A stretch of 64,000 nucleotides of DNA from Candidatus Eisenbacteria bacterium (GTDB lineage Bacteria > Eisenbacteria > RBG-16-71-46 > JAFGJU01). Shown here one piece after another: positions 25,288-29,088 of the stretch (positions are counted from its first letter, which is position 1; every line of letters begins with the position of its first letter). Under the pieces are notes generated by a model. The model was given only the letters and a program-made list of their open reading frames with translations, did not search any database and was not told the DNA's origin. The stretch is from NCBI GenBank assembly GCA_026388185.1, contig JAPLKG010000010.1:1-64000 (forward strand), in the 5' to 3' direction. Both the position numbers and the translations under genes were made by a program.

Positions 25288-25306
25288 GTTCGGACGTATT
25301 CGCGAA

Positions 25307-25344
25307 AAGGGAAGGGGCACATCTGCCGAGATGCCCCTTCCCTT
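25307..25344 (+). terminator. Strong hairpin terminator after icd
   Basis: The arms AAGGGAAGGGGCA and TGCCCCTTCCCTT are perfectly complementary over 13 bases. The inner bases CATCT and AGATG can extend the stem with a two-base bulge, closing on a GCCG loop. It lies 20 bases after the icd stop. The downstream strand has only a modest run of T (GGTCTTTG). The hairpin is symmetric and may also stop the minus-strand transcripts coming from 25484. Confidence 0.8.
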
Positions 25345-25375
25345 CGGTCTTTGTAGGCTGGAGCTGCACGTAACC

Positions 25376-25459
25376 CTCTGGACCGGAGAGCATGCCTGTC
25401 AACGTAACCATAGACTAGGGCATCTCAAGCGAGCTGCTCTCTCTCGGTCCGGTCCAGAG
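25376..25459 (-). other. Structured 3' region below the small-protein operon
   Basis: CTCTGGACCGG at 25376-25386 is perfectly complementary to CCGGTCCAGAG at 25449-25459. Inside lie further complementary pairs, AGAGCA with TGCTCT and ATGCC with GGCAT. The region begins 25 bases after the stop of the 63-residue minus-strand gene, so it could form a folded 3' end of that transcript. It does not resemble the paired elements at 27.0 and 27.8 kb in sequence. Its role is unknown. Confidence 0.4.
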
Positions 25460-25483
25460 ACTTGCTTGCGCAAGACTGCCGGC

Positions 25484-25675
25484 CTAGAGATGCACAACGA
25501 TACCCGGACTGCTCTCGTCGGCATCACCCATCAAGATCGCGAACACCGCGCATGCGATCCAGTCCGACAACTTCATCGTCTCCATCGCCACATCACAGAA
25601 AGGCACGTCACACAACCCCTTAACCGGCGCAGCCACGAACAACACCAGAAGAAGAACCACTACAAACATCTTCAA
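25484..25675 (-). CDS. Small exported protein of unknown function (63 aa)
   Basis: I do not recognise the family. The first 20 residues (MKMFVVVLLLVLFVAAPVKG) form a clear signal peptide. The mature part of about 43 residues has three cysteines, a hydrophobic patch (IACAVFAILMG) and an acidic stretch DADESS. The start is TTG at 25675, 9 bases after a strong GGAGG site. The alternative ATG two codons later is also possible. It lies 16 bases after the preceding minus-strand gene and so probably shares its transcript. A small bacteriocin- or signal-like peptide is one possibility, without further support. Confidence 0.6.
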   Translation of the reverse strand: MKMFVVVLLLVLFVAAPVKGLCDVPFCDVAMETMKLSDWIACAVFAILMGDADESSPGIVVHL

Positions 25676-25691
25676 CGCAACTCACCTCCTC

Positions 25692-26258
25692 TCACTTCTT
25701 CACTCGCTCAAGTGTATCCACCACCGCCCCGACCACCTCAAAGCCAGCTATGTTCCTGACATCGATGCTACCAGCACCAAACTTAACCCACCCACACGGG
25801 CTCCCATCCTTCGGGTGACACCACACAGAACACTTCGTCACAACCACAACCATCTTCCTCGCGTCGTACAGGCTCGTCTGCATTAAGTCAGGGTAGAAAA
25901 AGATCCCCTCACTCTCGATCCGCTTCCCCTCCTTATCAGTCAACACCAACTTTGTGCTCCTGGTGAACACCACCTTCTCAACTCTCTTGAGACCCACTCG
26001 AAACCCCAGGTACAGACCGGGCTCTTTCACCACCATCTCATACATCTTCAGCCCATCAAGCTCCGGAGGCTTCTTCTCCATCATCCTCTCAGCAAACCCA
26101 GGCTTCAGCTGCCCGAACCCAGCCACCGCCCACGAGCTGTCAGGAGCCCACCAAACATGCAGCGCATTCCCTTGCTTCCTGGCTTCGCACTTGCCTTGCG
26201 ACACGAAACCGCAGAGAAACACACTGCACATCAAGATGGCTGCCAACCTGCGGATCAT
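25692..26258 (-). CDS. Exported protein of unknown function, paralogue B (188 aa)
   Basis: No known family is recognised. A signal peptide (residues 1-25) precedes a domain shared with the next upstream gene. Shared blocks are VVFTRSTKLVL, DKEGKRIES, SLYDARKMVVVVT and SVWC, followed by GxVKFGAG and EVVGAVVDTLE. Both proteins are exactly 188 residues. Identity is moderate over the C-terminal two thirds and low at the N-terminus. The start follows GGGAGGTGAACG. It sits 13 bases after its paralogue and 16 bases before the 63-residue gene, a compact operon. Confidence 0.75.
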   Translation of the reverse strand: MIRRLAAILMCSVFLCGFVSQGKCEARKQGNALHVWWAPDSSWAVAGFGQLKPGFAERMMEKKPPELDGLKMYEMVVKEPGLYLGFRVGLKRVEKVVFTRSTKLVLTDKEGKRIESEGIFFYPDLMQTSLYDARKMVVVVTKCSVWCHPKDGSPCGWVKFGAGSIDVRNIAGFEVVGAVVDTLERVKK

Positions 26259-26271
26259 CGTTCACCTCCCC

Positions 26272-26838
26272 TCACTTGGTCTCTCCCTGCCCCTCCACAA
26301 TCGCCCCCACCACCTCGAACTCAACTATGTCCTCCATCCGGAAATCACCCTCAGCGAACTTGGCCACACCAGACGGGTGCCCCTTCCCATCACCACACCA
26401 AACCGACCTACGCGTCACCACTACCGCCATCTTCCTCGTGTCATACACCTCAGTCTGTGCCCTGTCAGGCGTGAACAGACACGTCTCGCTTTCGTACCGC
26501 TTCCCATCCCTGTCGATCAGCACGATCTTCGTGCTCTTCGTGAACACAACTTTATCCACCGAGACCAACTTCATTGCGAAGCCCATCCACTCACCAGGCT
26601 CGGCGACCAACACTCTATACATTTTTGCAACCTCTGCGTCAGCCGGCAGCCTCGACAGCACATCAGCAAGTGTACCCACTCGCCACGCCTTGAACTTAGT
26701 ACCAACCACCCATCCCCCATCAGGAGCCGTCCAAATCCCATCGCCGTACTCATTGACACGGAAATCAGCACAAGCACACGCCACAATCGACATCACCACT
26801 AACGGTGACACCACGAACACCAGCCCCATCTTCCTCAT
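26272..26838 (-). CDS. Exported protein of unknown function, paralogue A (188 aa)
   Basis: This is the first gene of the three-gene minus-strand operon. The ATG at 26838 is chosen because AAGGAG lies just upstream and the product then begins with a signal peptide (MRKMGLVFVVSPLVVMSIVA). It also makes the protein the same length as its paralogue. An in-frame GTG at 26868 adds ten charged residues and has no good ribosome-binding site. The conserved core is VVFTKSTKIVLIDRDGKRYES, TEVYDTRKMAVVVTRRSVWC and EVVGAIVEG. The start is 172 bases below a folded inverted-repeat element. The function is unknown. Confidence 0.75.
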   Translation of the reverse strand: MRKMGLVFVVSPLVVMSIVACACADFRVNEYGDGIWTAPDGGWVVGTKFKAWRVGTLADVLSRLPADAEVAKMYRVLVAEPGEWMGFAMKLVSVDKVVFTKSTKIVLIDRDGKRYESETCLFTPDRAQTEVYDTRKMAVVVTRRSVWCGDGKGHPSGVAKFAEGDFRMEDIVEFEVVGAIVEGQGETK

Positions 26839-27143
26839 CTCTCTCCTTTCTCTAACCCCGCACATCACAACATGCGCCCTCCTAGAAATGCAGGCCGGCC
26901 CGCAGGGCCAACATTCGACCCCGGGTGAATCACGCCATAGCCAAACCGCTCAGCGCAGTCGCACGCACCGACAACGCAACATGCGCCGCGTCGGCGTCCC
27001 GAAACAGCACCGGGCACACAGTCTCGGGCAGCAGCGAGTCGGCGAGAGACTCGTGGCGTGATCAAGCGCCACCTTGTGCCCGAACCCCGTGTGCCCCGGC
27101 CTGTACGCTACTGATGTTCGTCAGACTCCATCAGCGAAGACCT
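26839..27143 (-). promoter_or_regulatory. Leader region of the small-protein operon
   Basis: This 305-base stretch has no convincing gene. It contains the inverted-repeat element at 27011-27098. Closer to paralogue A lies a GGAGGGCGC site followed by ATG TTG TGA, a two-codon ORF. A 66-codon minus-strand frame across it has no ribosome-binding site and its sequence is explained by the folded element, so it is not called. Confidence 0.5.
27011..27098 (-). ncRNA. Three-way-junction inverted-repeat element, copy 1
   Basis: On the minus strand the outer arms pair through GGGCACAC and TCGGGCA blocks, with a small internal loop between them. Inside are two hairpins: GTGGCG/CGCCAC (27053-27072) and GAGTC/GACTC with a TCTCGCC loop (27035-27053). 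The same arrangement recurs at 27753-27846 with different bases. Positions that differ keep pairing as G-U only if the minus strand is transcribed. It may be a cis-regulatory RNA of the downstream operon; a REP-like mobile repeat is the alternative. Confidence 0.5.
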
Positions 27144-27227
27144 CTATCGACGCACCGGACATTCATCGAAGGGGACCCAGTAGCCCGCATCCACGATGAA
27201 TCCTTCCCTGGTAAAATCGCGATACAC
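27144..27227 (-). CDS. Possible 27-residue peptide gene
   Basis: GAGGAGG followed by TCCAA and GTG makes a textbook start for a 27-codon frame beginning MYRDFTREGFIVDAGYWVPF and ending CPVRR. It begins 10 bases after the stop of the RIDDIGF gene, and the ribosome-binding site overlaps that stop (TGAGGAGG). The composition is protein-like and aromatic, with one cysteine. There is no signal peptide. It is too short for family recognition. A chance ORF remains possible. Confidence 0.4.
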   Translation of the reverse strand: MYRDFTREGFIVDAGYWVPFDECPVRR

Positions 27228-27237
27228 TTGGACCTCC

Positions 27238-27561
27238 TCAGAAAGCGACACCCTGAGCAATGAGCTTCAGGAATGCGACCACAGGATCCCAGTTGAAAGC
27301 TCTCGCGCCGCGGATCACTGGGATCTTGGAGGCGAAGCCGATATCGTCGATGCGAGGTCTCGCAAACCCGATATCGTCTATCCTGCCCTCATTCTGGCTA
27401 GATGCCACGGGCACCCTGGAGCTGAAGCCGATATCGTCAATGCGAGATATCGCAAATCCGATATCGTCTATTCTGCCCTCTTCATAGCCACGCGCCGCTG
27501 CCGCACCCAGAGACCACGTAGCCACAAACAGGGCCACACACAGCAACACAGCATTTCTCAT
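27238..27561 (-). CDS. Secreted repeat peptide precursor with four RIDDIGF heptads
   Basis: I do not recognise this family. The 107 residues start with a signal peptide (about residues 1-23, ending GAAAA). Two tandem 30-residue units follow (28-57 and 58-87). Each unit holds two copies of RIDDIGF, at residues 30-36, 40-46, 60-66 and 70-76, and ends with a hydrophobic SSRVPV or ASKIPV. A tail (AFNWDP, then VVAFLKLIAQGVAF) closes the protein. It starts at ATG after GAGAGGAGGTG. The layout resembles precursors that release several identical peptides, or a short secreted repeat protein. It lies 191 bases below element copy 2 and divergent from an XRE-type regulator. Confidence 0.75.
   Translation of the reverse strand: MRNAVLLCVALFVATWSLGAAAARGYEEGRIDDIGFAISRIDDIGFSSRVPVASSQNEGRIDDIGFARPRIDDIGFASKIPVIRGARAFNWDPVVAFLKLIAQGVAF
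27301..27480 (-). repeat. Tandem 90-bp coding repeat (two units)
   Basis: The units 27391-27480 and 27301-27390 are each 90 bases and in phase with the reading frame. Each contains two copies of GACGATATCGG, so the palindrome CGATATCG appears four times. The 5' halves of the units are nearly identical and the 3' halves have drifted. This is what an internal duplication inside a peptide gene would leave. Confidence 0.85.
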
Positions 27562-27752
27562 TCTGATTCACCTCCTCTCAAGTGGACTCGCGGCGCCCCG
27601 CACAGACACCGGGCAACCCATTCAGCCCGGCTCCTCAACCTCGAAGGCCGACGAGGGGCCGCCACGGCCCGCTTGCAGTCAACCCCCAGCAGGGCACACC
27701 GCTACAACGACGCTTGACGTTCCTGTGCGCGTCAGTGTCCGGAGGCAGCTCC

Positions 27753-27846
27753 GGGGACACAGCCTCGGGCAGCAGCGAGTCGACGAGAAACTCGTGGCGC
27801 AAGACGCATGTCGAGCGCCACCGTTTGCCCGAGAGCTGTGTGCCCC
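27753..27846 (-). ncRNA. Three-way-junction inverted-repeat element, copy 2
   Basis: The arm GGGGACACAGCCTCGGGCA (27753-27771) pairs with 27826-27846 over 19 base pairs interrupted only by two single-base bulges. Inside are the hairpins GTGGCGC/GCGCCAC (27794-27821) and GAGTT/GACTC. An additional perfect hairpin CCGGAG/CTCCGG (27739-27754) abuts the outer stem. The inner-stem change from C-G (copy 1) to U-G here, and from U-G (copy 1) to C-G in the outer stem, keep pairing in minus-strand RNA only. The element precedes the RIDDIGF gene in the same orientation as copy 1. Confidence 0.5.
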
Positions 27847-28148
27847 GATCTCAGTGCCACCGACTCGAGGCATCAAACTGACGCAACTGATTCTGCTGCC
27901 GCGCACAAAATTGTCTGATGCCAAGAGTTCGGTGGCTTTCCGACCTCTCCCCTGAGCTTCGCCACAAGTCAGAATGTGATTTTCTGGTACGACCTCGTTT
28001 TAGATTGATCTACTTCAGGCCTCCTGCTGCCTGCAGAAAGGGCGATAGCGGAGGCGTGAATGCAAACGGCCCTTGGCAGATGCCCCCTGCAAAGAACCGG
28101 TTGCTAAGTTGACCTGCTGGCCGAGAGACGGAATGTCCTCTCTGCCGG

Positions 28149-28176
28149 TTGCACAACAAGTATTGCACAAGTGCAA
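28149..28176. promoter_or_regulatory. Candidate operator of the XRE-type regulator
   Basis: TTGCAC-AA-GTGCAA at 28163-28176 is a perfect palindrome. The half-site TTGCACAA occurs again at 28149-28156, so the starts are 14 bases apart. It lies about 100 bases before the regulator start, in the shared divergent region. Autoregulation by a dimeric HTH repressor is the natural reading, but it is inference. Confidence 0.5.
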
Positions 28177-28272
28177 AGATTTGTCAATGCGAAAAGTGAA
28201 GACGTCAGGATAAATCTTGCCTTCGCGCAACGTTATGCTAGACTTACTCGACTGCAGCGAGGAGACGAGAAA

Positions 28273-28932
28273 ATGAATATATCTGCTAGGCTGCGCAGTC
28301 TGATGCAGCAGAGAGGGATGAACCTTACCAAGTTGGCGGGACGTTCCGGACTTGCGGTTTCGAGCATTAGTCGGTACCTTTCTGGCAGACACGTGCCCGG
28401 TGCGGAAGCCCTCGCGAGACTCGCCGCGGCACTTGATGTGTCTACGGCCGAGCTTACGGGTTCATTTGGCGCACCTGCGCTTTCGTCCAAAGAGCAATTC
28501 CTTGTGCAACTGGAACAGCTCAAGGATGCACTCCTCAAGGACGACATCGGTGAAATTCGTGACGCCAGCGCGGGTGTCTCCGTGCCGCTCTACTCTTGCG
28601 TTCCAGGCACGAGAGGATTTTCGGAGCTCAAGCGCTTTCTTACTCCGGCTGACGTGACGGACCCCAAGGCCTATGCGGTTAGAATAGGGGATGACTCCAA
28701 CTCGCCGAGGCTTGAGCGTGGAGACGTCGCCGTATTCGCGCCATCGGCGCCCTGGAAGAGCGGCGATGTTTGCGCCGTAGTGCTGGCCGACGGTGGCGGG
28801 CGCATAGGGAGGGTAGGGCGAAAGGGTAAGGGACTTGTCCTTTCAGGAATCAAGCCAGGAAGCCCGTCCAGAACGATTTCCTCAGACGAAGCGAAGACTA
28901 TCCATAGGCTGGTCTGGATCAAGGTCCCGTAG
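28273..28932 (+). CDS. XRE-family regulator with S24/LexA-like C-terminal domain
   Basis: The N-terminal helix-turn-helix (ARLRSLMQQRGMNLTKLAGRSG-type, with SSISRYLSGRHVPGAEALARLAAAL) is of the cI/XRE class. The C-terminal half resembles the S24 domain: YAVRIGDDSNSPRLERGDVAVF corresponds to the catalytic-serine box, with a serine present. The position expected for the catalytic lysine appears to be arginine (GRIGRVGRKG). Self-cleavage is therefore doubtful, and the domain may act in dimerisation or ligand sensing. It has 219 residues from the ATG at 28273, after GAGGAGA. It is transcribed away from the RIDDIGF peptide gene and is its most likely regulator. Confidence 0.85.
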   Translation: MNISARLRSLMQQRGMNLTKLAGRSGLAVSSISRYLSGRHVPGAEALARLAAALDVSTAELTGSFGAPALSSKEQFLVQLEQLKDALLKDDIGEIRDASAGVSVPLYSCVPGTRGFSELKRFLTPADVTDPKAYAVRIGDDSNSPRLERGDVAVFAPSAPWKSGDVCAVVLADGGGRIGRVGRKGKGLVLSGIKPGSPSRTISSDEAKTIHRLVWIKVP

Positions 28933-28960
28933 CAGTTGGGCCTAATAGGCTCGCTACGGG
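28926..28960 (+). terminator. Hairpin over the end of the XRE regulator gene
   Basis: CCCGTAGC (28926-28933) includes the stop codon and pairs with GCTACGGG (28953-28960). An inner GCCT/AGGC stem strengthens it. There is no T run after the stem, so its efficiency as an intrinsic terminator is uncertain. Confidence 0.4.
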
Positions 28961-29088
28961 GCATTGGAACCCGCCGGCTTATGTTGGTGTCTTATGGTTG
29001 AGAGATCCACACCGCGAGAGAGCCACGCCCGGCACGTGCTTCCCTCCCAACACTTGCAGCTATTTGTTACCTCAAAAAGGGGGCTTTC

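What the first reader, a model, noticed from the sequence alone, without database searches (positions are those of the whole stretch)
25484..28932. Peptide island: multi-copy RIDDIGF precursor, exported paralogues and a divergent repressor
Seen: a 107-residue secreted protein carries RIDDIGF four times in two 30-residue units. Below it on the same strand are two 188-residue exported paralogues and a 63-residue exported protein, and a cI-like regulator is divergent. Known: multi-copy precursors release identical signalling, toxin or modified peptides, often under a linked XRE-type regulator. Inference: the island makes and senses, or is immune to, a RIDDIGF-type peptide. The adaptor/permease pair at 29.1-31.7 kb could export it. 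I know of no described system with this motif.
Basis: partly seen in the sequence, partly recalled or inferred. Interest (0 to 1): 0.78.

Follow-up and report, generated by a model that had tools for sequence, protein, structure and literature searches.

The report
Repressor-linked island of exported small proteins
A short inserted stretch of a little-known bacterium's genome makes a one-of-a-kind exported protein carrying the same seven residues four times, together with an unnamed pair of exported proteins that turns out to be conserved in two phyla; the pair is the solid find, and what the repeat does is open.

Summary
The sequence features are real. A 107-residue protein with a signal-peptide-like N-terminus carries RIDDIGF four times; the copies differ only at synonymous sites. 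Downstream lie two exported paralogues (family A, 40% identical) and a small exported protein (family B). A CI/S24-type regulator is divergent. The only consensus promoter in the island faces the heptad gene, and its spacer holds a palindrome found once, perfect, in the genome.

A sister genus has the flanking genes in the same order without room for the island, so the HlyD/MacB pair is backbone, not island.

The RIDDIGF protein was not found anywhere else searched. Families A and B, by contrast, form a two-gene exported pair, absent from Pfam, NCBIfam, PHROGs and PADLOC, at two further loci of this genome, in two relatives, and (A) in 17 of 20 genomes of another phylum, never with RIDDIGF. 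All three islands of this genome share a homologous promoter.

Best reading: a repressor-controlled cassette of exported small proteins built on an old A-B pair, with a lineage-specific repeat gene placed first. That A or B senses or gives immunity to a RIDDIGF peptide is not supported. Release of free peptides is possible, but there are no dibasic sites and no processing gene in the island.

The parts
27238..27561 (-). RIDDIGF protein, 107 aa: signal-peptide-like N-terminus (about 1-23), two 30-residue units with two RIDDIGF each, predicted C-terminal helix FNWDPVVAFLKLIAQGVAF
   Evidence: ORF and RBS; repeats; synonymous-only changes in heptads; helix 92-106 at pLDDT about 83 in a single-sequence model of low overall confidence
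27144..27227 (-). 27-codon ORF (GTG start) whose RBS GAGGAGG overlaps the heptad stop codon: MYRDFTREGFIVDAGYWVPFDECPVRR
   Evidence: coding status unproven
26272..26835 (-). Family A paralogue A2 (187 aa), exported, beta-rich
   Evidence: family conserved in two phyla
25692..26258 (-). Family A paralogue A1 (188 aa)
25484..25675 (-). Family B small exported protein (61-63 aa), C-x14-C; follows A1 by 16 nt
   Evidence: position behind A and shared residues; four B in own genome
27716..27847 (-). Leader hairpin copy 1, about 155 nt before the heptad start codon
   Evidence: repeat, RNA fold z = -3.4; two copies only in the genome
26987..27098 (-). Leader hairpin copy 2, about 152 nt before the A2 start codon; 78% identical to copy 1
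28159..28187 (-). Promoter TTGACA-N17-AATACT reading into the heptad gene; only consensus promoter found in 25.3-29.2 kb
   Evidence: exact string found twice in 874 kb sampled, both times at A-B islands (expected 0.04)
28163..28176 (.). Perfect palindrome TTGCACTTGTGCAA in the promoter spacer, candidate operator
   Evidence: only perfect match in the 2.6 Mb genome; the one-mismatch matches elsewhere are fewer than in the control pattern, so no regulon is indicated
28273..28932 (+). Divergent CI-like regulator (HTH + S24-like), 219 aa
   Evidence: absent from the sister-genus site by lack of space

Best explanation
The stretch between the isocitrate/isopropylmalate-dehydrogenase gene and the HlyD gene (about 25288-29088) is an inserted, lineage-specific island. 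Its minus-strand genes make exported proteins: a conserved pair, family A (about 185 aa, beta-rich) followed by family B (about 50-66 aa), here with two A copies, and in front a lineage-specific gene for an exported protein with four RIDDIGF repeats. Shown: gene order, signal-peptide-like N-termini, conservation of the A-B pair in two phyla, a homologous promoter at all three A-B islands of this genome, the repeated leader hairpin before heptad and A2, and silent-only divergence of the heptads. Inferred: the divergent CI-like repressor holds the promoter shut by binding the palindrome in its spacer; on release heptad, A2, A1 and B are transcribed together and exported by Sec. Inferred, weaker: A and B work as partners in the cell envelope, and the heptad protein works outside the cytoplasm as a repeated binding peptide, either intact or cut after the arginine that opens each heptad.
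For: A-B order conserved, usually with overlapping or touching genes, in G000 (three loci), G001, G003 (two loci) and the G115 phylum (17 of 20 genomes have A; B found behind at least 15 of them). B C-termini in that phylum are under purifying selection (pN/pS 0.45, pS near saturation). Empty sites: sister genus G002 has the dehydrogenase and HlyD/MacB genes with only about 480 nt between them; G001 and G002 lack the C8 island as well. Promoter with candidate operator; homologous promoters TTGACAAATCTTTGCACTTGTGCAATACT (window), TTGACAAGTATTTGCGTATGTGCAATAAT (C3), TTGACAACTAATTGTCCATACGCAATACT (C8). Same leader hairpin at the same distance before heptad and A2. Heptads conserved at protein level.
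Against: The heptad gene does not share the extreme coding-strand bias of the A/B genes (GC skew 0.15 against 0.36-0.50), so it may have come separately. A 402-nt gap separates heptad from A2; cotranscription is not shown. The resemblance of the heptad C-terminus to family B (WD..V.FL) is not significant: 1670 of 20000 shuffles score as well. The operator halves are imperfect at C3 and C8, and no regulator gene was seen beside those islands. No structure model good enough to read A (pLDDT 44). The single-genome heptad cannot be tested by comparison.
Confidence: 0.55

Rival explanations
1. Multi-copy precursor: the heptad protein is exported and then cut after each arginine to release several IDDIGF-type peptides that act as a signal or toxin, as in fungal Kex2-processed repeat proteins.
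For: Signal-peptide-like N-terminus, four identical heptads kept against silent change, each heptad beginning with Arg; Arg-C fragments would be IDDIGFAISR, IDDIGFSSR and similar. Repressor-type control. A second small ORF in the genome, MPKVIHSILAALLTYTISGGHAWWANGGHAWWMSGGHAWW, also has a multi-copy exported design.
Against: Only single Arg, no dibasic sites; no peptidase, peptidase-transporter or modifying enzyme in the island and none of the RiPP kind among 20 large genes scanned around it. The spacing (10, 20, 10) and the conserved flank [SR/SK][VI]PV also fit a folded repeat. Single genome, so no evidence of core-against-spacer conservation between species.
Confidence: 0.17
2. The heptad protein is a small repeat protein that stays whole: a structural or adhesive envelope protein grown by two rounds of internal duplication, with no released peptide.
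For: Nested duplication history readable in the DNA (10-codon unit first, then 30-codon unit). Export signal. The genome has surface repeat proteins; exact RIDDIGF occurs once more in the sampled third of the genome, in a 1142-aa secreted LVIVD beta-propeller protein with a FlgD-type tail.
Against: A recent structural duplication usually lets residues drift; here 0 of 8 changes in heptads are replacements while the flanks changed. Single-sequence model gives no fold for the repeats (pLDDT below 50 over most of them).
Confidence: 0.33
3. Toxin-immunity island: B and/or the heptad protein are exported antibacterial peptides and A the exported immunity or carrier protein.
For: Small exported peptides with amphipathic Trp-rich C-termini, paralogous A copies, island-like insertions, repressor.
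Against: In the G115 phylum the pair is near-universal and close to single copy, often beside rrf2-like and hcp genes, which fits an envelope or stress role better than a diversifying weapon; no match in PADLOC, Pfam or NCBIfam.
Confidence: 0.15
4. Prophage or mobile-element remnant: the CI-like gene and small exported genes are a leftover lysogenic-conversion module.
For: Regulator matches phage repressor family phrog_4 over its length; island missing in sister genera.
Against: No integrase, transposase or structural gene in the island; no relatives in IMG/VR, phage or plasmid collections; the other two islands have no CI gene beside them.
Confidence: 0.1

Closest known systems
Fungal Kex2-processed repeat proteins (KEPs; PMC7329392)
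   Same: Signal peptide followed by several near-identical short repeats in a small exported protein
   Different: Bacterial; repeats begin with a single Arg, no dibasic Kex2 sites; no DUF3328 or other modifying gene; one known member
CI/S24-type phage repressors (phrog_4, Pfam HTH_3 + Peptidase_S24)
   Same: Domain order; divergent gene with a palindrome inside the neighbouring promoter's spacer
   Different: No phage genes beside it; controls (by inference) exported small proteins; cleavage ability not tested
MacAB-type HlyD/FtsX export systems
   Same: Lie next to the island; MacAB genes also lie within a few kb of A-B in two genomes of the G115 phylum
   Different: In the sister genus the same pair stands beside the same dehydrogenase without the island, so it is not part of the module
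Bacterial RiPP precursors with several cores (cyanobactins, graspetides; from general knowledge)
   Same: Several copies of a core in one precursor
   Different: This protein has a Sec-type signal and no modifying enzyme in the island

Membership tests
Kex2-processed repeat protein (KEP) | Signal peptide for export | tested here: met
   Sequence MRNAVLLCVALFVATWSLGAAAA; hydrophobic-segment score 3.3; no dedicated predictor available
Kex2-processed repeat protein (KEP) | Several highly similar repeats | tested here: met
   Four RIDDIGF, two units 85% identical in DNA
Kex2-processed repeat protein (KEP) | Dibasic processing sites between repeats | tested here: not met
   Only a single Arg at the start of each heptad
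Kex2-processed repeat protein (KEP) | Release of the repeated peptide | not testable with these tools
   Needs mass spectrometry
RiPP precursor | Linked modifying enzyme | tested here: not met
   No such family in the island or in 20 large genes scanned in 16-63 kb; rest of genome not scanned
CI/S24 repressor | N-terminal HTH and C-terminal S24-like domain | tested here: met
   HTH_3 2e-11, Peptidase_S24 4e-5 just above cut-off; phrog_4 2e-26
CI/S24 repressor | Palindromic operator in the controlled promoter | tested here: inconclusive
   TTGCACTTGTGCAA lies in the TTGACA/AATACT spacer, one perfect copy in the genome; binding not shown
CI/S24 repressor | Ser-Lys self-cleavage | not tested
   By eye the lysine position looks like Arg; no structural alignment made (only the HTH matched a PDB entry)
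Peptide-sensing RRNPP regulator | TPR ligand domain | tested here: not met
   Regulator carries S24, no TPR match
Family B (own definition: small exported protein directly behind A) | Heptad protein's C-terminus matches the B profile | tested here: not met
   Score 2.0 bits, 1670 of 20000 shuffles as good

The most novel reading that the evidence does not exclude
A bacterial counterpart of fungal repeat precursors: under CI-type repression the cell exports a precursor and cuts it at arginines into several copies of an IDDIGF peptide, which acts outside the cell, while the accompanying A-B pair is a widespread, undescribed exported receptor/partner system that has been recruited here. The exact RIDDIGF in a large secreted beta-propeller protein of the same contig could mark its binding site or be a mimic of it.
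Probability: 0.1. Interest if true: 0.82.

Novelty: new variant of a known kind. Interest (0 to 1): 0.5.

Why it matters
The A-B pair is an undescribed exported protein family, near-universal in one phylum and amplified in this lineage in three promoter-sharing islands, so it probably has a real envelope function that nobody has assigned. The heptad gene gives one clean, testable case of a repeated exported peptide in a bacterium, with its own candidate operator. If the repeats are released as peptides, it would extend the repeat-precursor strategy known from fungi.

Tried and rejected
RIDDIGF pair as degenerate DNA in 84,980 species genomes and IMG/VR: none; whole heptad protein in IMG/VR, phages, plasmids: none; 146 relatives: best E about 0.004, low-identity matches to unrelated frames, taken as noise. 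A-family pattern scans of genome contigs and IMG/VR: none. Rfam over the island: nothing real. Structure of A from the two window copies: pLDDT 44, PDB fold matches all above E 0.2, not used. Profile search of A against PDB: only T-cell-receptor chains near E 0.05, taken as a generic beta-sandwich echo. Heptad C-terminus as a family B member: looked good by eye, failed the shuffle test. HlyD/MacB as the exporter: rejected by synteny. DNA-level reason for the heptad repeats (invariant GACGATATCGG): the three unvarying wobble positions are too few to mean anything.
Full report
What is there. On the minus strand, from 27561 down to 25484, four genes with good ribosome-binding sites encode proteins with signal-peptide-like N-termini: the RIDDIGF protein (107 aa), A2 (187 aa), A1 (188 aa) and B (61-63 aa); on the plus strand a CI-like gene starts at 28273. 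A2, A1 and B are 13 and 16 nt apart; heptad and A2 are 402 nt apart, with a 27-codon ORF directly behind the heptad stop. None of heptad, A or B matches Pfam, NCBIfam, PHROGs or PADLOC beyond chance level; the regulator has HTH and S24 domains and matches phrog_4.

The repeat is real and looks selected. The four RIDDIGF copies arose by two nested duplications: pairs within a unit differ at 5 of 21 nt, matching pairs between units at 1-2. All differences are silent. Outside the heptads the two units differ by five replacements and one silent codon. This argues for a protein-level role of the heptad, though the counts are small and come from one gene.

The repeat is not found elsewhere. Two heptads at the right spacing give no hit in 84,980 species genomes or IMG/VR, and the protein has no relative in phage or plasmid records, in 146 related genomes, or in the PMC text library. 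The own genome has one copy. In 874 kb of this genome sampled (33%), the exact 7-mer occurs once more, in a 1142-aa secreted LVIVD-repeat protein with a FlgD tail, where about 0.0007 would be expected by residue frequency. I found this after the fact, and RRID-type phrases may be common in such domains (own recollection), so I do not lean on it.

The A-B pair is the solid discovery. The own genome holds six A genes and four B genes at three loci. Other genomes: G001 (same family) and G003 (same class, two loci), and G115 of another phylum. In the phylum of G115, 17 of 20 genomes carry A, and a roughly 50-residue exported B ending in a motif like LWDWIVRFLTWAAGGWHGF follows at least 15 of them, usually overlapping the A stop. 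Its C-terminus is under purifying selection. In this genome's class, B instead has two cysteines 14-16 residues apart; the two B types are linked by position behind A, not by significant sequence similarity. In the G115 phylum the pair often lies near rrf2-like and hcp genes. None of the loci fetched has a RIDDIGF protein or another such repeat protein beside A-B.

The island is an insertion. In G002, of the same family, the window's order from 16.3 to 31.7 kb is kept, but only about 480 nt lie between the dehydrogenase and HlyD genes where this genome has 3.8 kb. G001 and G002 likewise lack the island at C8. So the HlyD/MacB pair belongs to the backbone. I cannot say for certain whether the islands were gained here or lost in the sisters.

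Control. The only consensus promoter in 25.3-29.2 kb reads into the heptad gene: TTGACA-17-AATACT at 28187-28159; one such match is also about what shuffled sequence gives, so the promoter call rests on the comparison that follows. Its spacer contains TTGCACTTGTGCAA, the only perfect match to TTGCACNNGTGCAA in 2.6 Mb, where about 0.14 would be expected by chance. The exact promoter string occurs twice in 874 kb, once here and once at the C8 A-B island (0.04 expected), and the C3 island has the same element with AATAAT. The heptad gene therefore sits first behind a promoter shared by A-B islands. A 120-nt hairpin lies about 150 nt before both heptad and A2. Two copies are too few to test covariation.

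What argues for a separate origin of the heptad gene: its base composition is like the backbone, whereas the A and B genes of this genome are strongly depleted of C on the coding strand (GC skew 0.36-0.50, heptad 0.15).

Mechanism. I commit to a repressor-controlled cassette of exported proteins: the CI-like protein keeps the promoter closed; when it lets go, heptad, A2, A1 and B are made and exported by Sec. Control by the regulator, cotranscription and export are inferred from sequence. What the products do outside is open. I think it most likely that A and B are partners in the envelope and that the heptad protein acts there as a repeated binding element; release of free peptides is possible (0.17) but there are no dibasic sites, and no protease or modifying gene in the island. 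The confidences given to the best explanation and to the rivals overlap: the first two rivals are versions of what the heptad protein does inside the same cassette.

Noticed in passing
L029:2319-2441 (G000:C8): 40-aa ORF with a strong RBS, MPKVIHSILAALLTYTISGGHAWWANGGHAWWMSGGHAWW: three GGHAWW copies at the C-terminus, just before a MASE9 HD-GYP protein gene. With the RIDDIGF protein, it is the only hydrophobic-start small ORF with such repeats among 254 in 874 kb. No hit for the repeat in IMG/VR.
   Followed up: partly
L109:7042-10470 (G000:C10 about 71.0-74.5 kb): 1142-aa secreted LVIVD beta-propeller protein with FlgD tail contains one exact RIDDIGF.
   Followed up: partly
window:25484-26835, and L028 and L029: A and B genes of this genome have extreme coding-strand G-over-C bias (third positions C 0.13-0.20, G 0.48-0.57), unlike neighbours and unlike the heptad gene; might reflect heavy transcription.
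   Followed up: no
L028 and L029: C3 and C8 A-B islands share a roughly 490-nt stretch, mostly non-coding leader plus the A signal-peptide region, at 82% identity, higher than their A genes; at C3 a truncated B lies just before it. Mosaic, as if recombining.
   Followed up: partly
L029:7603-7659: Long hairpin behind B (CTGCACCAGGAAG...CTTCCTGGTGCAG), also behind B at C3; terminator-like without a T run.
   Followed up: no
L043:663-4100 and window:44668-48102: A tricorn-type protease gene lies directly before A-B in G003; the window has one 16 kb from the island. May be chance.
   Followed up: no
L045, L091-L098: In the G115 phylum A-B lies near hcp, an rrf2-type regulator and a lipoprotein gene in most loci.
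   Followed up: partly
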